Shown one piece after another: positions 292-13,600 of a stretch of DNA of 64,000 nt. A program made the translations under genes and the position numbers. Within the stretch, counting starts at the first letter, position 1. Every line of letters begins with the position of its first letter. This DNA is from Paucimonas sp. (GTDB lineage: Bacteria > Pseudomonadota > Gammaproteobacteria > Pseudomonadales > Pseudomonadaceae), in NCBI GenBank assembly GCA_031253995.1, contig JAIRVG010000021.1:186001-250000 (forward strand), written 5' to 3'. The notes under the pieces were generated by a model. That model was not told where the DNA came from. It was given only the letters and a program-made list of their open reading frames with translations, and searched no databases.

Positions 292-612
292 ATGAGTGAT
301 TACTTCCCCGTCGATTGCAGCGCTTCGCTCCAGCGAATAGGACTTCTGATCAAGTCTGCTCGTCTGGAGCAGGGTATCCGCCAGCTGGATGTGGTCAGTC
401 GTCTCGGCGTACCAGAGAAGGTCATCCGCCGAATCGAACGCGGTGATCCCGCGGTCAGCGTCAAGTCACTGATGCTTGTGCTGTGGAATCTGGGTCTGAT
501 CGAGAAAGTATTCCGTTCGTTCGAGGGCAGTCCGATTTCATTCTCGGAGTTGAAGGAAGATACCCGTGGGCGCCGCGTGCGTCAGCGCCGCGCGAAAGCG
601 GAGGATTTTTGA
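292..612 (+). CDS. hipB: HipB-like antitoxin, XRE-family DNA-binding protein
   Basis: This 106-residue protein has a helix-turn-helix of the XRE type at about residues 13–68 (segments QLDVVSRLGVPEKVIRRIERG) and a basic C-terminal tail. It would bind the palindrome just upstream and neutralise the HipA kinase encoded next; the stop and the hipA start overlap as TGATG, which implies translational coupling. No strong Shine-Dalgarno is visible (only AGG). The pair sits between CRISPR arrays A and B rather than in a core-genome setting. Identification rests on the HTH fold and on the neighbour being a clear HipA; I am confident of the module, less of exact subfamily. Confidence 0.88.
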   Translation: MSDYFPVDCSASLQRIGLLIKSARLEQGIRQLDVVSRLGVPEKVIRRIERGDPAVSVKSLMLVLWNLGLIEKVFRSFEGSPISFSELKEDTRGRRVRQRRAKAEDF

Positions 613-1832
613 TGCCCAGCGCCTACATCTACATGGAGCACCCTGGTACTGCCGAAGTGCTGACGCTCGGAAAGCTGACCCTGCATCACAACAAACCAGG
701 AGAGTTCGTCTATTCGCCTTCTGCAATCGATGCCAGGGTGTGGGTACCCGATCCTATCCGCTATCCCTTGTCTGACCAGGTCTTTACGATCACCAGGAAC
801 CAGGGCGTGCCCGGTTTCATCGATGACGCCATGCCGGACGGGTGGGGCGAGCGGCTGCTTCAGCGGATGCAGCGCGACCCGGTAAGCCGTTTCGACCTGC
901 TGGTCGGGTCTCCCAACAGCGACCGCGTGGGCAATCTCATGACCGGCCGGGACAAGGCGCCTCCTGTTGGCGTGGGGCAAAAGCCCTTGTCACGGCTGAC
1001 GGGCCTGGATCGGTTCATCGACATCTGCGACGTGGTCTATGACAACGACATAGGCGACGAGGACGTGAAGGCACTCGGTGTACGGGATCAACGTTCGTCG
1101 GTCGGTGGAGCGCGTCCCAAGCGGACATTCTCGGGCGACCGGAAGCTGATCCTGGCCAAGCCGCACGATCGTTATGATCCTTACGAACTGGCACCCGTGG
1201 AACATGCCTGCATGACCTTCGCGGCAAAGAAGGGCATGCGTGTCGCCAAGACCTCCCTCTACCACGACAAGAAGGGCACGACCCTGTTGGTGGAGCGCTT
1301 CGACCGCCGTTACGTGGACGGTGTTTTTCGTCGGGTCCCGTTCCTGAGTGGTCTGACGTTGCTGGACACCGAATGGACCGTCGCGGACCTTACGGCTCGC
1401 TCCTATGCACGGCTGGCCGACGAGATGTACCGCCGCAAGGTGCCAGACGCGGACCGTCGTGAACTCTACTTGCGCATGGCCTACAACGTTCTGACGGGAA
1501 ATACGGACGATCACCCGCGCAACCACGCGATCATTTTCATCGACGGAGGCTGGCGGCTTTCGCCAATGTATGACGTGCTGCCAATTCTCGACGAAGGGCG
1601 CGCCAGGTACATGTCGATGTCGGTGGGGATCGACGGCGTGAAAGTCACCCGGTCCAATCTGCTGAGCCAGCATCTGCACTTTGCTCTGACCAAGGACGAG
1701 GCCGAGGGGATTCTCGATCAGGTGGCGGGCTGGGCTGATGAGCTCAGGGAGTATTACGGTTGTTTCTTCAAGGGCAAGGCTCTGGAGGCTGCGCGAGAGG
1801 CGGTCAGTGCCGAGGGGTTGTTGTCGGGGTAG
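612..1832 (+). CDS. hipA: HipA-like serine/threonine kinase toxin
   Basis: HipA toxins phosphorylate a cellular target (glutamyl-tRNA synthetase in E. coli HipA) and drive cells into dormancy. This 406-residue copy starts at the ATG overlapping the hipB stop; an upstream in-frame extension to 483 is shadow. The N-terminal domain (about 1–100) carries the PGFIDDAMPDGWGERLL-type segment of HipA proteins. The kinase core includes the catalytic-loop motif GNTDDHPRN at about 296–304 and the metal-binding YD at 320–321, so the enzyme looks intact. Length is close to the usual 400–440. It is followed by the leader of array B, with no gene between. Its target in this organism cannot be read from sequence. 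Confidence 0.92.
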   Translation: MPSAYIYMEHPGTAEVLTLGKLTLHHNKPGEFVYSPSAIDARVWVPDPIRYPLSDQVFTITRNQGVPGFIDDAMPDGWGERLLQRMQRDPVSRFDLLVGSPNSDRVGNLMTGRDKAPPVGVGQKPLSRLTGLDRFIDICDVVYDNDIGDEDVKALGVRDQRSSVGGARPKRTFSGDRKLILAKPHDRYDPYELAPVEHACMTFAAKKGMRVAKTSLYHDKKGTTLLVERFDRRYVDGVFRRVPFLSGLTLLDTEWTVADLTARSYARLADEMYRRKVPDADRRELYLRMAYNVLTGNTDDHPRNHAIIFIDGGWRLSPMYDVLPILDEGRARYMSMSVGIDGVKVTRSNLLSQHLHFALTKDEAEGILDQVAGWADELREYYGCFFKGKALEAAREAVSAEGLLSG

Positions 1833-2084: not shown

Positions 2085-3856
2085 GTTCACTGCCGTATAG
2101 GCAGCTCAGAAATCCCAGGCAGGCTGGGGCACGCCGACTTCGAAGTTCACTGCCGTATAGGCAGCTCAGAAAAAATCGCAGCAGGAAGCCTTCAAGTCGC
2201 TACGGTTCACTGCCGTATAGGCAGCTCAGAAAAGATGCCGCTCACGCAGCCAGCGCAGCGCATCGTTCACTGCCGTATAGGCAGCTCAGAAACCGCGATC
2301 CCGGCCTTGCCAGATGTTGACGGCGTTCACTGCCGTATAGGCAGCTCAGAAAGTACCGCTCAAGTCCGCATCGTGCGCAAAGCCGTTCACTGCCGTATAG
2401 GCAGCTCAGAAAATGCAGACCGTCGGCATCATGATGCAGAACGGCGTTCACTGCCGTATAGGCAGCTCAGAAAGCCAAGACTCGACTCAAGGTCACACCG
2501 CGGATGTTCACTGCCGTATAGGCAGCTCAGAAAAAGGTCGGGCACCTCGGCCAGCAGGTGGTTACGTTCACTGCCGTATAGGCAGCTCAGAAAGAGGTCG
2601 GGGGGATCTTGGCGCAAACAGCGATGTTCACTGCCGTATAGGCAGCTCAGAAATGGAAATCGCTGGCCGGGGTGTCGAGCAGGTTGTTCACTGCCGTATA
2701 GGCAGCTCAGAAATGCTGATCGAGGCCGCCAAGGCTGCCGGCAGCGTTCACTGCCGTATAGGCAGCTCAGAAAAAGAGCGCGTCTCCGCAGATCGCCGGC
2801 CTGGTGTTCACTGCCGTATAGGCAGCTCAGAAATGCACCGCCGCACCTACCGCGACGGCGCCGTGGTTCACTGCCGTATAGGCAGCTCAGAAAAGGGCAA
2901 TCCGGGGCATGTCGCTCAGGGTCGGGTTCACTGCCGTATAGGCAGCTCAGAAAGCCCACAGAGAGGTGCCGAGCGAATACAGCAGGTTCACTGCCGTATA
3001 GGCAGCTCAGAAATTCAACACCAACTACCAGGTTGCCGCGAACAATGTTCACTGCCGTATAGGCAGCTCAGAAAGAGGTGCCGGTTCCGGAACCAGAGAC
3101 GTAACCGTTCACTGCCGTATAGGCAGCTCAGAAAAGGTCCAGCGGCTCGACTGTTCCACCCAGGCGGTTCACTGCCGTATAGGCAGCTCAGAAATGCAGG
3201 CGACCGAACAGCTGGGATTGCTGCTCGTTCACTGCCGTATAGGCAGCTCAGAAATTTCCGGGCCGCGAGCGCCATCCTCATACCTGGTTCACTGCCGTAT
3301 AGGCAGCTCAGAAATTGCGGGATCGGGTTGGGTACCTGCGGTAATTCGTTCACTGCCGTATAGGCAGCTCAGAAAACACCGGCACGGTAGCGGATCCGCA
3401 GCCGCCCGTTCACTGCCGTATAGGCAGCTCAGAAACAGCTGTCGGCGCCGGTGGTCTCGCCGCGCTCGTTCACTGCCGTATAGGCAGCTCAGAAAAGACA
3501 GGCGAAGCGACTCCAAGCCCTGGCCGGGTTCACTGCCGTATAGGCAGCTCAGAAAAACTGCTCGGCAGTCTCGGCACGTTTGATTTTGTTCACTGCCGTA
3601 TAGGCAGCTCAGAAAAAGGAAGGGCAGTGCATGGTACTGCGCTCAATGTTCACTGCCGTATAGGCAGCTCAGAAAAGGGCAACGACCACTGGATTGGGCT
3701 GCAGGCCGTTCACTGCCGTATAGGCAGCTCAGAAAGCAAGAATGCGGATGACGCGCGGCGTGTCGTAGTTCACTGCCGTATAGGCAGCTCAGAAAAACTA
3801 CGCGCTCTACGGCGACATGAGCGAACGTGTTCACTGCCGCATAGGCAGCTCAGAAA
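2085..3856 (+). CRISPR. CRISPR array B, 30 repeats / 29 spacers (type I-F)
   Basis: Thirty 28-bp repeats occur at 60–61 bp spacing from 2085 to 3829, giving 29 spacers of 32 or 33 bp. The repeat has stem CTGCC/GGCAG, loop GTATA and tag CTCAGAAA. Only the last repeat (3829–3856) differs, with loop GCATA, marking the leader-distal end. I saw no duplicated spacers by eye. It is the longest array of the four and has an intact leader, so it is probably still acquiring spacers. Long open frames across it (VHCRIGSSE and SLPYRQLRK repeats) are artefacts of the repeats. Confidence 0.98.
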
Positions 3857-3992: not shown

Positions 3993-5513
3993 ATGCGGTC
4001 AGTGGGCTATACGTTGCTGTGCGAAAGGCTGGGGATCAAGGCCGTCCCCCTGAATCGACCTGCTATCGTCCAGCCAGTCACGCGGCTCAAAGAGATCGGG
4101 CGCACGCTCGCCGTGCCTCCAAAGCAAGCTCCTGCACAGGATGACCTGCTCGGGAACGTTCTATTTGCCCTCAAGCATGAAGGCACGAATCTCTCGATTC
4201 TCGCCCAAGCCCTGCCACAGATTCCTGTCGAGCACTTCTTTGTCGCATTGCAGGGAACACCAAACGGCGTCTATATCCGTAAAGCCTGCTTCTTGAGGGA
4301 AGCTTTCTCTGCTGATTTGATCGAGCAGACTTCTCCCGTCAAAGGTGCATTCATTCCACTGTTTGATCCGACACGGTACGTCACTCGCCCTGGCTCACGC
4401 AATTCCAGGTGGCGGGTTGAATTCAACGGTCTGGGTGATTTCTCGTATTGCGCTACCGTTGAGCGGACACCTGAACTGGCGAGTCTCCTGGAACACGATA
4501 TTCTCGGCAAGGCCAAGGCGTTCATCGAGTCCCTTCCACCAATGATGATGGACCGGGCCATCAACTGGGCGTACTTGCACGAGACCCAGGACTCTTTCGC
4601 AATCGAGAAAGAGGCGCCGAGCGAGAACAAGGCTCGCCGGTTCATTCAGCTTTTACGCCAGGCCCATGAACAATTGCCGCTGACCGAGGATTACCTCGTC
4701 CACTTGCAGAACGCGACCATTTCAAACCCTTTGGATCTGGCAGTGGCATTCCGTCATGAACAGAACCACTTGGCCAACGGACTTCAGGGCGCTGCGGGTG
4801 TCAGCTACGTTCCGCCGCCACCGGAGCTGTGTCGGGAATTGATGGAAAGCCTGATGGGCTTCGCCAACACGGCCTCACAGCAAATCGATCCCTTGGTCGC
4901 CGCCGGCATCATCTCGTTCGGGTTTGTGTTCCTTCATCCCTTCATGGATGGAAACGGCCGTTTATCCCGCTTCCTGATTCACCATGCGCTGTGTCAGAGC
5001 GGTGCATTGGAGAAAGGGCTATTGCTCCCTATTTCGGTAGCGATGAAACAAGAAGAGAACAGATACCTGGAGACCCTGCAGACATTCTCCCGGCCAGTGC
5101 GAGAGTTCTGGCAAGTCGACTGGATCGATTTCGAGCACTTCCACTTTGAGTTCACCGGTTCACCTGCGGTGTATCGATACTGGGATGCAACGCAAAGCGT
5201 AGTGTTCACCTGCCAGATGGCCAAGCGTGCCCTGGAGGTTGAACTGCGCGACGAAACAGCATTTCTGGAGAGCTACGATGCCGTTTACAAGGCCGTGGAT
5301 GAGCGCTACGACGTTCGTGGCAGTGATCTCGCATCGCTGGTCATGATGTGCCTGAGCAATGGTGGGACCGTGTCGAACAACCGGCGCAAGCAATTCCTGT
5401 ACAGGGTTCCGGAAGCGATCTTCGACTTTATCGAAGAGACAGCCCAGCAAGTACTTGCCGCACGGCGTACGGCGATGGAGGAACATCGTACCGTCGGGCA
5501 GGGGGATGACTGA
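3993..5513 (+). CDS. Fic-domain protein (putative AMPylase), class II type
   Basis: Fic enzymes transfer AMP (or related groups) from a nucleotide to hydroxyl side chains of target proteins. The protein has 506 residues. The signature HPFMDGNGRLSR lies at residues 315–326 with the catalytic His at 315, and is fully canonical. An inhibitory-helix motif lies upstream, as in class II Fic proteins: S201-F-A-I-E205, followed by K where G or N is usual; E205 would block the active site. The start ATG has GGAAGGA about 8 bp upstream. No antitoxin gene is adjacent; self-inhibition may substitute. It is flanked by arrays B and C, which face each other across it. Targets are unknown. Confidence 0.9.
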   Translation: MRSVGYTLLCERLGIKAVPLNRPAIVQPVTRLKEIGRTLAVPPKQAPAQDDLLGNVLFALKHEGTNLSILAQALPQIPVEHFFVALQGTPNGVYIRKACFLREAFSADLIEQTSPVKGAFIPLFDPTRYVTRPGSRNSRWRVEFNGLGDFSYCATVERTPELASLLEHDILGKAKAFIESLPPMMMDRAINWAYLHETQDSFAIEKEAPSENKARRFIQLLRQAHEQLPLTEDYLVHLQNATISNPLDLAVAFRHEQNHLANGLQGAAGVSYVPPPPELCRELMESLMGFANTASQQIDPLVAAGIISFGFVFLHPFMDGNGRLSRFLIHHALCQSGALEKGLLLPISVAMKQEENRYLETLQTFSRPVREFWQVDWIDFEHFHFEFTGSPAVYRYWDATQSVVFTCQMAKRALEVELRDETAFLESYDAVYKAVDERYDVRGSDLASLVMMCLSNGGTVSNNRRKQFLYRVPEAIFDFIEETAQQVLAARRTAMEEHRTVGQGDD

Positions 5514-7950: not shown

Positions 7951-8928
7951 TCAGTCGAAGTCGTAGTCGGTTTCGGGCTGGTAGTGGTTGCGGCAGCGAT
8001 AGAGACCGCGTTCGGGGTCGCTGTCGGCGTACCACAGCAGGTGGTCGGCAGACTGCAGTCGGTGCGGACTGATCCACTGGCCGATGCTGAACAAGCTTTC
8101 CACCAGACGAAACGGAGTGCTCTGGTCGCGGGCGCTGGAGACCGATCCGGGTGGCTGAAGCTCGCTCAGTCCGACATAGCCGACCGGGATGGGGACGATC
8201 CAGCCGAGGTGCTGGCGGTCGTTGAGCCAGTCTTGTTTCTTCACGACACCCTCGTCTTCAACCACAGCTTCAGGTGCTCGCCAGTTGATGCGCGAAAGTG
8301 ACAACCAGGCATTCAGCGGCGAAGCGTTGGGATCCCTGGATTGCAATTCGGCATGCCGCAGGGTCAGCAGGTCATGGCGTTCGACTAGCACGAACCCGGG
8401 GAGCAGACGCCACATCGCGGACTGGAAGTTGTCCCGTTTGTCGTCGACGCTCCCGGCAAGCGGCTGCAGCAGAGGGCGCTGCCGTGTACCCGGAATGATG
8501 CTGCCCCCGGCAATACGCATCTGCGACAGCAGGTCGGTGATCCGTTGTGCCAACCCGGCCTTGTCAGTGCTGGCAAGCGCAGGACCCTGTACCGCGAAGA
8601 CCAAACTCAGTTCGAGGTGGATGCGGCCTTCTTCGACGATGGCCGAAGACTTGCCGTCCTTGTCGATCGGGTTGCGGGTCAGGCGAAACCCGTTGACGAA
8701 ACCGCCCTCGGTGATCTGTTCCTGATGGTCATGGACAACCACCGCGACGGCATTGAACTGCAGGTCGATATCCTCCGTGCGGGCCTTGCGCTCCAGTGCC
8801 CACATCAGGCCGATGAAGGCGGTCATGGAGGGGAAGCCGTGGGTCAACGGGCTGGAAATCGCGTTGGCGTTCTGCACGCGAAGGCGGGGTACGATCAACA
8901 GGTGGTCGAAGCCAGGCAATTCACTCAT
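7951..8928 (-). CDS. csy2: Csy2/Cas5f, crRNA 5'-tag-binding subunit
   Basis: Csy2 forms a dimer with Csy1 at the 5' end of the crRNA and helps read the PAM. The protein has 325 residues and starts [27 protein letters not shown] in its first line, with the [18 protein letters not shown] segment typical of the family. Its start overlaps the end of csy1 by 8 bp, indicating coupled translation. Length and order are standard for I-F. No anomalies seen. Confidence 0.96.
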
Positions 8929-10261
8929 CTTGCGCCTCCAGTTTCCGGGCGATCGGGATGACGTAATCCGCGATCTCGCGGCTCCAGTAGGCGTGTTCTG
9001 TGGTGCTGACCGGCAGGCCGCGTTTCTTGAGGATATCGTTCAGCCAGATGCCGAAACGGCTGGCGACCTCGTCGGGCCAGGTCTGGCTGGCGAATGCGGC
9101 GGTGAAGTTCAGGTCGGCTTGCGCGTGATCTTCCCGAGGCGCGAGCTGCGCCCGTTCGGGATCAAGCCAGAGCTGTTCGCAGATTGGCAGTTCGCAGGTG
9201 CTGTCAGAAGTCCAGCCAGCTGGGTACTGATTGCGGATACCTTGGCCGAAGGCGGCCAGCGACCGGCCGATCGCGCGTTTGATACGCTCACGGGCCTGGC
9301 GGGTTTCGAAGGATTGCTCCGGATCGCTCTCCAGCAGTTTGCATAAGGCGGTGATCTGGCGATTCACCCCGTCGAAACCGCGGAAACGCTTGAACACTGA
9401 GTCGATGGCGAGCAGGGGATTGCGGGTGCCGCTACCCCAGCTCGGTGGTAGCGAAGCCAGCAAGTAATTGACCCCGCCGCGGTCGCTGTTGAGCTGGCTG
9501 ACGTTTTGCGGCTTGGTACCACCGAGCTTACGCGCGACCAAGTCGCGGTAGTCGCGGTAGATGTCTTCGTGCGGAGCTTTGTCGCGCCAGGCCTGGCGGG
9601 CCTTCTTGTTGCGCTCGCCAAAGCGCGCATCGTTGATGTCCAGGTGGGCAGCGTGCACCAGGCTGCTGGGGAACAGCGGCTGCAACAGATGAAAGCCGGC
9701 ATCATCCGCCGGGTCGCCAGATACGCTCCAGTACACCTGCTTGGCCATTTGGTGGGAACTGATGGTGTCGCTGGGGCGGATCAGGCCCTTGAAGGCTTCG
9801 GCCCAGTTGTTCGCGATCTCCGGAGAGTCGTGCAGGGCGGCGAGCAGGTCGGCATCGTTGTTCTGGAGCCAATCCAGCAGGCGCCGGCCTTCGACTTCGA
9901 CCTTGAGGAATTTGTAGACGTCCAGGGCTGCGGCGTTGCCGACGATGTCGGTGGCGTGGCCGTCGAGTAGCGAGTGACTGCCAATTTCCTGGTGGTTGGG
10001 CAGCGAGGTGGGATCTACGTACAGGCTGGTACCGCGGGCGTCCGGGTGGGTCGCCTTGAGTACGTGGGTTACCGCCTGGATCTGCGCAACCCGTCGTGCG
10101 GCATCGGCGAGCCAGGTGGTGTAGTCGTATTTTGCGGCGGTGGGGGTGTCATCGTCCGGCTCGGTACCCTTGAGCTTGGCTTCCTTTCGCTCGTTGATGA
10201 AGCTGGCGATGGTGGTGCGGAACAGGGTGGTGCGGGGTGAGGGAAGAATCTGTTCGTTCAT
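8921..10261 (-). CDS. csy1: Csy1/Cas8f, large subunit of the Csy complex
   Basis: Csy1 recognises the CC/GG PAM in double-stranded DNA with Csy2 and recruits Cas2-3. The protein has 446 residues, close to the family norm of about 435. The N-terminus is MNEQILPSPRTTLFRTTIASF; a helical C-terminal part follows (WLNDILKKRGLPVSTTEHAYWSREI region). It is the first gene of the csy operon. Unlike the compact P. aeruginosa PA14 locus, 416 bp separate it from cas2-3, so it must have its own promoter. The Shine-Dalgarno is weak (AAGAG). A 7-bp hairpin lies 22 bp upstream of the start. Confidence 0.95.
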   Translation of the reverse strand: MNEQILPSPRTTLFRTTIASFINERKEAKLKGTEPDDDTPTAAKYDYTTWLADAARRVAQIQAVTHVLKATHPDARGTSLYVDPTSLPNHQEIGSHSLLDGHATDIVGNAAALDVYKFLKVEVEGRRLLDWLQNNDADLLAALHDSPEIANNWAEAFKGLIRPSDTISSHQMAKQVYWSVSGDPADDAGFHLLQPLFPSSLVHAAHLDINDARFGERNKKARQAWRDKAPHEDIYRDYRDLVARKLGGTKPQNVSQLNSDRGGVNYLLASLPPSWGSGTRNPLLAIDSVFKRFRGFDGVNRQITALCKLLESDPEQSFETRQARERIKRAIGRSLAAFGQGIRNQYPAGWTSDSTCELPICEQLWLDPERAQLAPREDHAQADLNFTAAFASQTWPDEVASRFGIWLNDILKKRGLPVSTTEHAYWSREIADYVIPIARKLEAQDE

Positions 10262-10282: not shown

Positions 10283-10299
10283 ACTTGGTGTTACCAAGT
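10283..10299 (-). promoter_or_regulatory. Hairpin/inverted repeat in the csy1 5' leader
   Basis: ACTTGGT (10283–10289) and ACCAAGT (10293–10299) are perfect 7-bp arms around a 3-bp loop, ending 22 bp upstream of the csy1 ATG. It could be an RNA hairpin limiting csy1 translation or a protein operator. A second short palindrome, GTTCTTAGAAC, lies at 10368–10378. Function is not known from sequence. Confidence 0.45.
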
Positions 10300-10364: not shown

Positions 10365-10382
10365 TTAGTTCTTAGAACACAT
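10365..10382 (-). other. Five-codon mini-ORF in the csy1 leader
   Basis: On the csy1 strand, ATG TGT TCT AAG AAC TAA (Met-Cys-Ser-Lys-Asn) is preceded by AGGAG (10389–10393) at an ideal 6-bp spacing, about 100 bp upstream of csy1. This is a better ribosome-binding site than csy1 itself has. It may be chance, a leader peptide, or a small RNA-encoded element such as those paired with crRNA-like antitoxins. Nothing in the sequence decides between these. Confidence 0.3.
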
Positions 10383-10465
10383 GCGGATCTCCTGAACGCT
10401 TGATTTGGTTGAGCCCAGCGCTGGCGTTTTGCGCTAGGTCGATGCTGACGATTGGCTTGTTTTTA

Positions 10466-10496: not shown

Positions 10497-10522
10497 CCAC
10501 TGTGTCTGAATCCTGTACAGGT
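10497..10522 (+). promoter_or_regulatory. PAM-flanked target site of the mini-CRISPR guide
   Basis: CC at 10497–10498 is followed by 24 bp that match the pseudo-spacer at 10598–10621. Positions 1–9 are identical (ACTGTGTCT), 13–17 are identical (TCCTG), and 18 of 24 match overall, mismatching at 10, 12, 18, 20, 22 and 24. CC immediately 5' is the type I-F PAM. A perfect seed with poor distal pairing is the expected design for binding without Cas2-3 cleavage. The site spans the -35 of the rightward promoter and touches that of the leftward csy1 promoter. Confidence 0.85.
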
Positions 10523-10534
10523 GATCTGCATAAT
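10506..10534 (+). promoter_or_regulatory. Candidate promoter of the mini-CRISPR RNA
   Basis: CTGAAT (10506–10511) and CATAAT (10529–10534) are 17 bp apart; the -10 matches 5 of 6 consensus bases. Start of transcription would be near 10541, some 30 nt before the first pseudo-repeat. The -35 lies inside the target site of the RNA it would make, which predicts negative autoregulation. Confidence 0.5.
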
Positions 10535-10540
10535 TTTTAG

Positions 10541-10689
10541 CTTTCTACGTCAACAGCTGGTTTAAGCTTGTTTCACTGCCGCGAGGTAGCTCAGAAAACT
10601 GTGTCTAAGTCCTGCAAATGCTTTCACTGCCGAACAGGTAGAGTGCCCAAAAGAGCTAAGCCAAGCTTTCGCCTGGCCTAGCTCTTTTT
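10541..10689 (+). ncRNA. Single-spacer mini-CRISPR encoding a crRNA-like regulatory RNA
   Basis: Pseudo-repeat 1 (10570–10597) keeps stem CTGCC/GGTAG (one G·U pair), a shortened GCGA loop and an intact CTCAGAAA tag. Pseudo-repeat 2 (10622 to about 10650) keeps stem CTGCC/GGTAG with loop GAACA, but its 3' half is degraded, which is tolerable because only the stem is needed for the last cut. Between them is a 24-nt pseudo-spacer (10598–10621), 8 nt shorter than normal. It matches a CC-flanked site 99 bp upstream. The architecture resembles cas-regulating RNAs and CRISPR-regulated antitoxin RNAs known from other CRISPR types. Processing by Csy4 and loading into the Csy complex are inferred from the preserved stems and tag. 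Confidence 0.85.
10649..10689. terminator. Bidirectional terminator between mini-CRISPR and cas2-3
   Basis: A 14-bp stem with two mismatches (10653–10666 with 10671–10684) and loop TTTC is followed by TTTTT on the plus strand (10685–10689) and by a T-run on the minus strand (complement of 10649–10652). It ends the rightward small RNA and the leftward cas1–cas2-3 message. The cas2-3 stop codon (10678–10680) lies within the stem. Confidence 0.85.
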
Positions 10690-13600
10690 CGCAAACCCCA
10701 ACACCGAGTGATACCGCCACCCAAACGTGCTCTCGTAAACCGTCACTGCAGTAAACCGCTCAGCACAAACCTCCAGCGGTAACTCCAGCTCCTCAGCCAG
10801 TGCCTCCAGCAACTCCATCACATCGTGCTGTCCCCAGGGTGCAATCCCGGGCCCAAGATCCCTTTCCAGATCGATCGGACTGAACAACTCCGAACACTCC
10901 AGATAAACCCGCGACTCATTGAACCGTCCCGCCTCCTGAATCCGGTGCAGCACCAACCGCTCCCGGTCCTCATCCGGAAGCAGCACCAGTTCCTCTTCAC
11001 GCCCGCCATTCTCCCGAAACGGCTGATGCTGCGGCAGCACCCAGGTCAACGCCGCCTGCGGAAACTGCCAGGCGCAAGCCGCATCCAGGTCGAGCGTTTC
11101 GCGACTGACACGCCGTGCGAATTGCGGCGAGGCAGCTCGCTCTTTCGGCAGCATCAGCTCACTCAATCGGGCATGTTCAAGATCGACCAGGCTTTCCTTG
11201 GGCTTCCATGCCGAATGCTCTTTGGGCTGGATACGCGGTCGGGCGCTGATGACGTCGATATCACCCGGCTCAAGCAGCTTCCCCAGCCTGTGGGTCTTCA
11301 ACCTGAAGCGGTGATCGGGCGGTGCCCCGTCCTGTTCGAACCCGGGTTTTACAAAGGCCGCATCCGGTTTTTTATGCGGGGTCAGCTGGTTCTCGAAATG
11401 CCGCAGGTTCGTCTCGAAGATCAGCACGTTCGCCGCGTCGCACGGTTGGTTACGGTGCCGCTGTACCCGCCCGGCCAGTTGGATCAACGATCGCATCGAC
11501 GAAGGCTCGACCACCGCCCAGTCATAGTCGTGATCGCGCCCCACTTCCGTAACTGGCGAGCCGAGCACGACGAACAGGTGGTCCTGCTCCGGATAACGCC
11601 GCAAGGCTTCGCGGATATCTGGCTGGTCGAACACCGCATCCTTGTCCCTGCGGTTCAGTGTCCGGTCCAACTGCGCTTCGATGGCCGAACGCAACAGCAG
11701 CGGAAAGCGCGAGTGGTAAACGCACAGATGAATCCGCTGCCCCTGCGCGGCGCCCAGCTGGAACAGGGCGAGGGCGACATCGAACATCGGTTCGATATTG
11801 GCCATGCGCACCAGCCCGAAGCTGACGCGTTTTCCGGTGTGCGGACAAATTCCGGCGTGCCGTGCATGGCCGATTTGCATGGCTTCGCGAATTTGCGCAG
11901 CAAACTCCTTGTACAGCAGCTCCCTGCTTTGGGCAGCAAGGTTCAATTGCACTATTTCGCCGCGTCGGCAGGGGGGGACCTTGCCCAGTTCGGCGACGCG
12001 TTTTTTCACGAAGTGCCAATGTTGTTCTTTGAACGTCGGAGCATCGTCGCACCTTGCCTGGTGCGTGCCGAACTCATCGACCCACAGACAGCCAATCGGC
12101 TCGCTGCTCTGCGCAATACCACGGTTACGCCCATAGTGCTGACGACCCGCCCTGTAGGCCTGGAACATGCCCTCTACCAAGGCCGGCGGCAGGGTGGCCG
12201 AAGACAGCAATACACGCGTTCCCAGCAGCCCCGCGCAATAGACCAGGCGGGTAACGGCGGGCTGGTCCGCCAGATCGAAATCATCCAGCTCGTCCAGGAC
12301 CAGATCGCTGCTCATCAGGCGCAGCATCGGTGCGATCTGGCGACCGGCGCGTTGCGCTTCCGTCGCTGGCATCAGGTGGTCGATGGTGCAGACCAGCATC
12401 GGAGCACTGAGCAGCTTGCGGATGCTCGGGTCGTCCATGGCCTTGTCGAGCAGCGGGTGCTGGCTGGTATTGCCTTCGTATAAAAGGTGGCTGTCTTCCT
12501 CGATCAGCGCCTGGATGGATTCCGAGCCCATGTCGGAAGCTCTGGCCTGGTGGAATTCGAAGAGGACACGGCTGGCGGAGCCACCGACGTGCAAGGCCAG
12601 CTCGTCCTCGCTCAGGTGCAGGTCGCGGCGATAGCTGTCGCCGGTTTGGCGCGTCAGAGTGCGCAGGCCCAGGGCGAAGGTGCAGCGCAGTCCCAGTTCG
12701 GGGTCGGCCAGGGCGTTCATGATGCGTGCATTGGCCAGGGTCTTGCCGCAACCGGTGGACGCCATGTTGACGATGAACACGCCCTTGCCATCGAACTGGG
12801 TGCGTAGGCTGGTGGTGGCATCGGCCGCCTTGTCCTGCCAGCGGAAGCGCTCGTTTCCGCTGCGTTTGCGCATGCCACGGTGGCGGAGCAGGCGTGGCAG
12901 GTGGCGTTCGAAGCCGGGCAGCCCCAGGACGACGCCGGCGCTCATGCGCGCCACGCCAAGCAGGTGCTCGTCCAGTGGCTGCTTGAGGCTGCCATCGGTG
13001 TGGGTATTGGCGAAAACGCGGTAGTCCTTGTCGCCCTTCACCCGGCGCCCGTCCTCGGGAGACAGGCTGGAGTAATGGTGGTCAGCCAGCATCAGGCTGA
13101 GCCTGGCCAGGTGCATGACATAGGGGTTGGACAGCCAGTCGCCTTTGCCGGTCTTGCTGCTCAGTGCCAGCAGGCGCTGTGCAACCTTGGCCGCCTGGGT
13201 TCGCCACTTCGGCAGGACGACGGGCAAGGGCAGATCGAATTGCCAATAGGGTGCGATATCCGCCGGCTCGGTCGCGTTGGTCAGTTCGTTCCATTCATGG
13301 GTGATGCCGTCGAGGATGTTCGGCAGCATCGTCGGGCTGAAATCGGTGGTGCGCTGTCCGAGCCAGACCGGGCTGGACGATCGGGATTGATCCGGTGGCC
13401 GCGTGGGCAGGCGGTGGTGGCTGACCACCAGCCAGGCGATGGCTGCGGCCAACGGAGGCAGATGGCGGAAGGGCGGTGGTGTGTCGCGGTCCAGACCGTC
13501 GCGCATGAAGCGCCCCGGTGCCAGCCAGTGTGGGTCGTGCTGTGGGTCGGCGGCGGCGAGGCGCGTTAGCCAGCCTGCATCGTCATCCTTGCCGACAAAG

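What the first reader, a model, noticed from the sequence alone, without database searches (positions are those of the whole stretch)
10497..10652. One-spacer mini-CRISPR whose guide matches a PAM-flanked site beside the csy1 promoter
Seen: two degenerate I-F repeats (10570–10597, 10622 to about 10650) both keep the Csy4 stem, and the first keeps the CTCAGAAA tag. They enclose a 24-nt pseudo-spacer matching 10499–10522 with positions 1–9 identical and 18 of 24 overall, directly 3' of CC, the I-F PAM. Known: crRNA-like RNAs with partial matches repress cas promoters (CreR) or toxin promoters (CreTA) in several CRISPR types; I do not recall a I-F case in this arrangement. Inference: the Csy complex loaded with this RNA binds but does not trigger cutting, repressing its own effector operon and tuning it to crRNA supply or anti-CRISPR attack.
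Basis: partly seen in the sequence, partly recalled or inferred. Interest (0 to 1): 0.95.

Follow-up and report, generated by a model that had tools for sequence, protein, structure and literature searches.

The report
CRISPR guide aimed at own genes
Beside a bacterial CRISPR immune system lies a worn-down mini-array with a single guide that matches, next to the right recognition motif, a site ahead of the genes for the system's own DNA-binding complex, so the complex likely turns those genes down; many relatives carry such guide-target pairs at the same place, often with a predicted RNA toxin in between.

Summary
The guide-target match (14 of 15 read positions, CC-flanked) was not reached in 5000 shuffles. 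It is not a one-off: 56 of 158 distinct csy1 loci carry a degenerate mini-CRISPR on the divergent strand with its own CC-flanked match; guide and target co-change, and positions 6 and 12 match near-randomly. The closest published case, Acinetobacter I-F creTA, sits in the same cas3-csy1 gap. In 36 loci, the window's included, the target lies 219-533 nt from csy1; 28 of these carry a Shine-Dalgarno-led mini-ORF with two adjacent minor codons, 24 at codons 8-9 (0.33 expected), of varied identity (AGA, AGG, TTA, ATA, TCA): a creT-like family. In 20 loci the target is 7-197 nt from csy1 and none has that codon pair: CreR-like candidates. The window keeps the creT leader shared with Pseudomonas japonica, but its frame closes after five codons without tandem minor codons. 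Best reading: a CreA guide kept over a decayed creT, likely now repressing the transcript leading into csy1-4. Promoter, RNA and repression are untested; a live toxin stays possible.

The parts
10570..10597 (+). PsiR1, degenerate I-F repeat with intact 8-nt CTCAGAAA tag (4-nt loop)
   Evidence: sub-threshold Rfam CRISPR-DR4 hit
10598..10621 (+). PsiS, 24-nt pseudo-spacer (guide)
10622..10650 (+). PsiR2, degenerate repeat, Csy4-type stem kept, tag lost; predicted 20-nt 3' handle 10622-10641
   Evidence: handle length by analogy with I-F crRNA
10497..10498 (+). CC PAM of the target
10499..10522 (+). partial target of PsiS, 18 of 24, 14 of 15 core positions
10389..10393 (-). AGGAG Shine-Dalgarno-like motif of the creT-like leader
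   Evidence: leader block shared with P. japonica
10365..10382 (-). creT-like mini-ORF, five codons then stop; no tandem minor codons
10346..10362 (.). stem-loop after the mini-ORF (6 pairs)
10283..10299 (.). 7-bp hairpin in the csy1 leader, kept in P. japonica with one compensatory pair
10651..10690 (.). strong hairpin with T-run downstream of the mini-CRISPR, overlapping the cas2-3 stop; likely its terminator
8921..10261 (-). csy1
   Evidence: TIGR02564
7951..8928 (-). csy2
   Evidence: TIGR02565
6893..8077 (-). csy3 (ORF; the family match starts at residue 60, so the true start is probably later)
   Evidence: TIGR02566
6327..6986 (-). csy4/cas6f (ORF; the family match starts at residue 35)
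   Evidence: TIGR02563
10678..14073 (-). cas2-3 (Cas3f)
   Evidence: TIGR02562
14070..15047 (-). cas1f
   Evidence: TIGR03637

Best explanation
The mini-CRISPR at 10570-10650 likely makes a short crRNA-like guide of the CreA kind that would steer the Csy complex to the CC-flanked site 10499-10522, where partial pairing is predicted to block, without cutting, the leftward transcript that leads through a creT-like leader into csy1-csy4. Shown: repeats, guide, PAM, partial target, intact csy1-4, cas2-3 and cas1, co-change of guide and target in relatives, and the early-closed toxin frame. Inferred: transcription, Csy4 processing to about 52 nt, loading, binding without cleavage, and repression. 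The module looks descended from a creTA toxin-antitoxin pair; as the toxin frame closes after five codons here, the kept guide most likely now serves as a brake on csy1-4, a CreR-like role.
For: Match 14 of 15 with CC, 0 of 5000 shuffles as good. 56 of 158 distinct csy1 loci share the layout; with foreign guides 38 of 3080 comparisons reach the same threshold. Match counts of 56 by position: 54-56 at 1-5 and 7, but 12 at position 6 and 7 at position 12, fitting Csy, which flips out every sixth base (recalled). Versus P. japonica, guide and target changed together at positions 2, 5 and 15. csy1-4, cas3f and cas1f all exceed family cut-offs. The window's mini-ORF has five codons, only 1 of 3 start-hairpin pairs and no tandem minor codons, against 24 of 36 far-target loci with the pair at codons 8-9. 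No run of four T lies between the leader and csy1. 20 near-target loci, 0 with that pair, show that such guides occur without creT.
Against: No promoter was found by consensus scan, so it is not shown that csy1 is under the targeted promoter; 235 nt lie between PAM and csy1. No RNA data. P. japonica, the closest relative found, appears to keep the tandem-codon creT, so decay may be recent and the guide merely not yet lost. In the published Acinetobacter CreT, toxicity was abolished by synonymous changes at codons 2, 3 and 5 and the stop codon was dispensable (passages), so an early-closed ORF need not be harmless. Some loci with intact creT have stem-loops before csy1, and whether csy1 is co-transcribed there is unknown.
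Confidence: 0.55

Rival explanations
1. It is a working CreTA addiction module: the guide silences a toxin RNA from the mini-ORF at 10382-10365, so loss or inhibition of Csy would stop growth. The short ORF would act as a minigene that ties up tRNA or by its leader RNA.
For: Geometry and leader of the creT family; the published Acinetobacter CreT does not need its stop codon and acts as RNA; similarly short five-codon ORFs occur in Acinetobacter ANC 7970 and in L161 beside intact guide-target pairs.
Against: Frame closes after five codons, no tandem minor codons, 1 of 3 start-hairpin pairs, family profile score -12.9 (rank 277 of 127,884 window positions), although that profile also scores some true members low.
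Confidence: 0.28
2. A relic: both creT and creA are decaying and the pair no longer does anything.
For: Second repeat has lost its tag, repeats are degenerate, and creT looks broken.
Against: Degenerate second repeats are usual in this family and in published creA genes (PMC8501985); the match is still 14 of 15 and three core positions co-changed with P. japonica.
Confidence: 0.12
3. Chance, or an ordinary array remnant that happens to resemble the gap.
For: True arrays with the same kind of repeat lie nearby; one array spacer also matches a CC site in the gap at 12 of 15.
Against: 0 of 5000 shuffles reach 13 or more; 56 of 158 csy1 loci share the layout; 36 of 47 loci with a 300-599 nt stretch upstream of csy1 carry it against 1 of 50 with under 150 nt.
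Confidence: 0.02

Closest known systems
Acinetobacter type I-F CreTA (WCHA45, LoGeW2-3, ANC3789; PMC10097628)
   Same: Same cas3-csy1 gap of about 400 nt, two degenerate repeats, partial guide, CC PAM, target between creA and csy1, creT leader with Shine-Dalgarno and mini-ORF divergent from creA.
   Different: Window toxin frame closes after five codons (published mini-ORF 33 bp), host is Pseudomonas, guide 24 nt instead of 20; no toxicity data.
CreR, cas-regulating RNA (Liu et al. 2023, not held; reviews PMC13131331, PMC12737573, PMC12948488)
   Same: crRNA-like RNA from a mini-CRISPR with partial match near its own cas genes, predicted to repress them and to respond to crRNA load or anti-CRISPRs.
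   Different: Reported for I-B, I-E and V-A in one review; another says 'Type I and Type V-A'. This is I-F, the csy1 promoter is not mapped, and a creT remnant lies in between.
Haloarchaeal CreTA with tRNA-sequestering CreT (PMC8501985)
   Same: Start codon, two consecutive minor codons and a stem-loop, as in the far-target relatives here.
   Different: I-B archaea; pair placed close to the start rather than at codons 8-9; the window itself lacks the pair.
Racr, phage repeat-like anti-CRISPR RNA (PMC10651486, seen in search listing and abstract start only)
   Same: Repeat-like RNA gene outside a normal array.
   Different: Solitary viral repeat; here two repeats, a guide and a target inside a cas locus.

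Membership tests
CreTA (type VIII toxin-antitoxin) | creA: two degenerate repeats keeping Csy4-type stem, first keeping the 5' tag | tested here: met
CreTA (type VIII toxin-antitoxin) | partial guide-target match flanked by the subtype PAM, target on the creT side | tested here: met
CreTA (type VIII toxin-antitoxin) | creT with Shine-Dalgarno and start codon between target and csy1 | tested here: met
   AGGAG-ATG, conserved block with P. japonica
CreTA (type VIII toxin-antitoxin) | creT toxin part: about 10-codon ORF with start-codon hairpin and, in relatives, tandem minor codons | tested here: not met
   five codons, 1 of 3 hairpin pairs, no tandem pair; hence not filed as a complete CreTA
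CreTA (type VIII toxin-antitoxin) | toxicity relieved by CreA-Csy | not testable with these tools
   needs an experiment
CreR | mini-CRISPR encoding a crRNA-like RNA with limited complementarity | tested here: met
CreR | target in or next to the cas promoter | tested here: inconclusive
   235 nt from PAM to csy1, no promoter recognised, no T-run before csy1
CreR | no toxin gene under the targeted promoter | tested here: inconclusive
   toxin frame looks decayed but leader is kept
CreR | represses cas expression | not testable with these tools
   needs an experiment
Canonical I-F CRISPR array | near-identical 28-nt repeats and 32-nt spacers | tested here: not met
   degenerate repeats, 24-nt spacer

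The most novel reading that the evidence does not exclude
Type I-F loci across Proteobacteria run a CRISPR-guided switch in the cas3-csy1 gap that exists in two states: CreTA, with a roughly 10-codon toxin RNA whose minor-codon pair at codons 8-9 is swapped between AGA, AGG, TTA, ATA and TCA, and a toxin-free CreR state with the target next to csy1. The window is caught in transition: toxin frame lost, guide and target kept as a csy brake. That would be a I-F CreR and a visible route from addiction module to regulator.
Probability: 0.45. Interest if true: 0.82.

Novelty: new variant of a known kind. Interest (0 to 1): 0.72.

Why it matters
It would extend RNA-guided cas self-control to type I-F and show how a CRISPR-guarding toxin module can decay into a regulator. 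Guide and target co-change in dozens of loci, giving ready-made test pairs, and the fixed position of interchangeable minor-codon pairs makes the tRNA-starvation idea for bacterial CreT directly testable. Anti-CRISPR work would gain a built-in sensor of Csy inhibition to look for.

Tried and rejected
Rejected: chance or plain array remnant; an Rfam name for the element (one search gave only sub-threshold hits, none in the gap). A sigma-70 promoter on either strand was sought and not found. A first genome-contig scan with the window's csy1 alone matched 12 stretches but no relative; the alignment scan then gave 510 relatives, of which the tool kept the best 80. A position-weight profile of 28 creT starts did not recognise the window's element (score -12.9, rank 277 of 127,884), but its leave-one-out scores were low for several members (0.4 for L070, 1.4 for L160), so it is a weak test. 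Looking for T-runs between creT and csy1 gave no common rule: present in 10 of 28 loci, absent in 18, the window among the latter. A further draw of 115 relatives gave no closer csy1 than that of P. japonica.

Rows dropped before counts: 178 loci with csy1 were reduced to 158 by identical 400-nt upstream stretches; 3 loci had no csy1 hit. The first detector gave 81 candidates in 69 of 158 loci; the count of 56 keeps only same-strand targets between mini-CRISPR and csy1 with at least 11 of 15, so L127 and L141, whose best CC target lies on the other strand, are left out. Of the 102 remaining loci 3 still hold a creT-like ORF (L059, L066, L127), so 56 is likely a lower bound; the detector also favours CTGCC-type stems. 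The sample is not random: genomes drawn by kinship plus the 80 best csy1 relatives. Plasmid loci L182-L185 are outside the 56; their guide-target pairs were read by eye. Far-target loci without a tandem pair in the automatic test, 8 of 36: L001 (window), L052, L082, L089, L094, L136, L161, L163. One search chose start codons partly by hairpin; the hairpin counts quoted are, anchored on the codon pair. The 34 starts were hand-listed.

Full report
What was checked. It holds a complete type I-F set, cas1, cas2-3 and csy1-csy4, all above NCBIfam cut-offs, and several arrays. In the 416-nt gap between cas2-3 and csy1 lies the reported element, at the reported coordinates.

Is it more than chance? 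Yes. Over positions 1-17 without 6 and 12 the CC-flanked site matches the guide at 14 of 15; in 5000 dinucleotide shuffles of the gap the best was 12 (12 in 3, 11 in 20), and no other of 10,976 CC sites in the window reaches 11. Against this, one of the other spacers of the window's arrays (57 tag-following stretches compared) also matches a CC site in the gap at 12 of 15, about what 57 tries could give.

Relatives. csy1 was searched in 398 same-genus genomes (17 with a hit, own genome included) and its family in 298, 293 and 369 genomes of family, order and class (22, 40 and 32 with hits). An alignment scan of genome contigs found 510 relatives, best 80 kept. After removing duplicates, 158 distinct csy1 loci were scanned. 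In 56 a Csy4-type hairpin with tag lies on the strand divergent from csy1, and the guide behind it matches a CC-flanked site between it and csy1 at 11 or more of 15 positions. With foreign guides the test reaches 11 or more in 38 of 3080 comparisons and 13 or more in 8; with the own guide 13 or more in 49 of 56. The foreign set includes near relatives, which may account for some of its high scores. By the stretch from csy1 to the previous long ORF, the module is found in 36 of 47 loci at 300-599 nt, 8 of 14 at 600 or more, 9 of 41 at 150-299, 1 of 50 below 150, and 2 of 6 not measurable.

Guide and target co-change. P. japonica's guide differs from the window's at core positions 2, 5, 8, 10 and 15; at 2, 5 and 15 the target changed in step, at 8 and 10 one of the two loci is mismatched. 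Across the 56 loci positions 6 and 12 match in 12 and 7, near or below a random quarter, while 1-5 and 7 match in 54-56. A guide held in Csy, with every sixth base out of the helix (recalled), should look like this.

Two layouts. In 20 loci the target is 7-197 nt from the csy1 start; 0 of 20 has a Shine-Dalgarno-led ORF with two adjacent minor codons at codons 8-9 and 1 of 20 has such a pair anywhere. In 36 loci it is 219-533 nt away; 28 of 36 have such an ORF, 24 with the pair at codons 8-9, against 2.86 and 0.33 loci expected from shuffles. The pairs are AGA AGA, AGG AGG, AGG AGA, TTA TTA, TTA AGA, AGA TTA, AGG TTA, ATA ATA or TCA ATA, and, one codon later, TCA TCA or ATA TCA. For 34 hand-listed mini-ORFs compared with the long ORFs of their own loci, codons 8-9 are used at a median of 2.7 per thousand against 19.4 for the others (Wilcoxon p 8e-6), and the rarest adjacent pair starts at codon 8 in 25 of 34. 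In the 28 ORFs with the pair at codon 8 or 9 (one of them the published LoGeW2-3), start-codon bases 1, 2 and 3 can pair with bases 15, 14 and 13 in 24, 26 and 28; A-T or G-C at 1-15 accounts for 23 of 28 (Fisher p 2e-5). These are marks of creT: the Acinetobacter toxin needs Shine-Dalgarno, start codon and this hairpin (PMC10097628, passages and sections), and haloarchaeal CreT needs two consecutive minor codons (PMC8501985, passages). A result that does not fit a simple tRNA-starvation model: in the Acinetobacter toxin the passages name codons 2, 3 and 5, not 8 and 9, as sensitive to synonymous change.

The window within this. 235 nt lie between its PAM and the csy1 start, and an AGGAG-ATG leader sits 114 nt past the PAM, where creT starts in the others (100-146 in most). 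This block is nearly identical in P. japonica while its flanks are not, and P. japonica has AGA AGA at codons 8-9 of the ATG frame. In the window the frame closes after five codons with no tandem minor codons, only 1 of 3 start-hairpin pairs can form, and the family profile does not recognise it. L161 (frame closes before the pair) and L052, P. entomophila (pair out of frame, read by eye), are further cases of a lost toxin frame with guide and target kept; Acinetobacter ANC 7970 also has a five-codon ORF.

Mechanism. The best reading is repression by guided Csy at 10499-10522 of the leftward transcript. As the toxin frame looks decayed and no run of four T lies between the leader and csy1, the remaining effect is most likely on csy1-4. 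The live-toxin rival stays open. Not shown: promoter, RNA, processing, binding, repression.

Known and new. CreR is reported for I-B, I-E and V-A (PMC13131331, passage), or more loosely 'Type I and Type V-A' (PMC12737573, passages); the primary paper was not held, so whether it lists I-F I could not see. I-F CreTA is reported for Acinetobacter, with a dozen homologues near related csy1 genes (PMC10097628, discussion). Searches for I-F CreR, wider I-F CreTA and csy1 autoregulation listed no such report; they cover open-licence papers, and I read the listings and the passages named here only. New as far as these searches go: the spread over Pseudomonas, Xanthomonadales, Halomonas and beta-proteobacterial loci (names), the swap of minor-codon pairs at a fixed place, the near-target class without creT, and a decayed toxin over a kept guide.

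Noticed in passing
L052, L065, L073, L096, L097, L125, L136 (gap upstream of csy1): A second CC-flanked seed match lies 18-32 nt from the main target on the mini-CRISPR side, like a tandem operator; with L163 (at -14) 8 of 56 loci have an extra site, against 48 of 3080 with foreign guides.
   Followed up: partly
window 2714-2745 and 10328 (minus strand): An ordinary array spacer matches a CC site in the creT-csy1 leader at 12 of 15 core positions and 20 of 32 overall; borderline chance given 57 spacers tried.
   Followed up: partly
window 292-1832 and 3993-5513: HipB-like, HipA-like and Fic-like ORFs lie between CRISPR arrays; NCBIfam matches are weak and below cut-offs.
   Followed up: no
L013, L015, L016, L020: In these same-genus loci a HipB/XRE-like reading frame, divergent from csy1, sits about 300 nt upstream of csy1 and no mini-CRISPR was found (frame judged by eye).
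   Followed up: no
window 10283-10299: A 7-bp hairpin just upstream of csy1 is kept in P. japonica with one compensatory base pair; possible leader control of csy1.
   Followed up: no
L161, L185, window 10365-10382: Three creT-like ORFs in unrelated hosts close at codon 6, right after the start-hairpin region; this may be decay, or a minigene-like toxin form.
   Followed up: partly
L059, L066, L127: creT-like ORFs with a minor-codon pair at codons 8-9 upstream of csy1 although no mini-CRISPR with same-strand target was detected.
   Followed up: no
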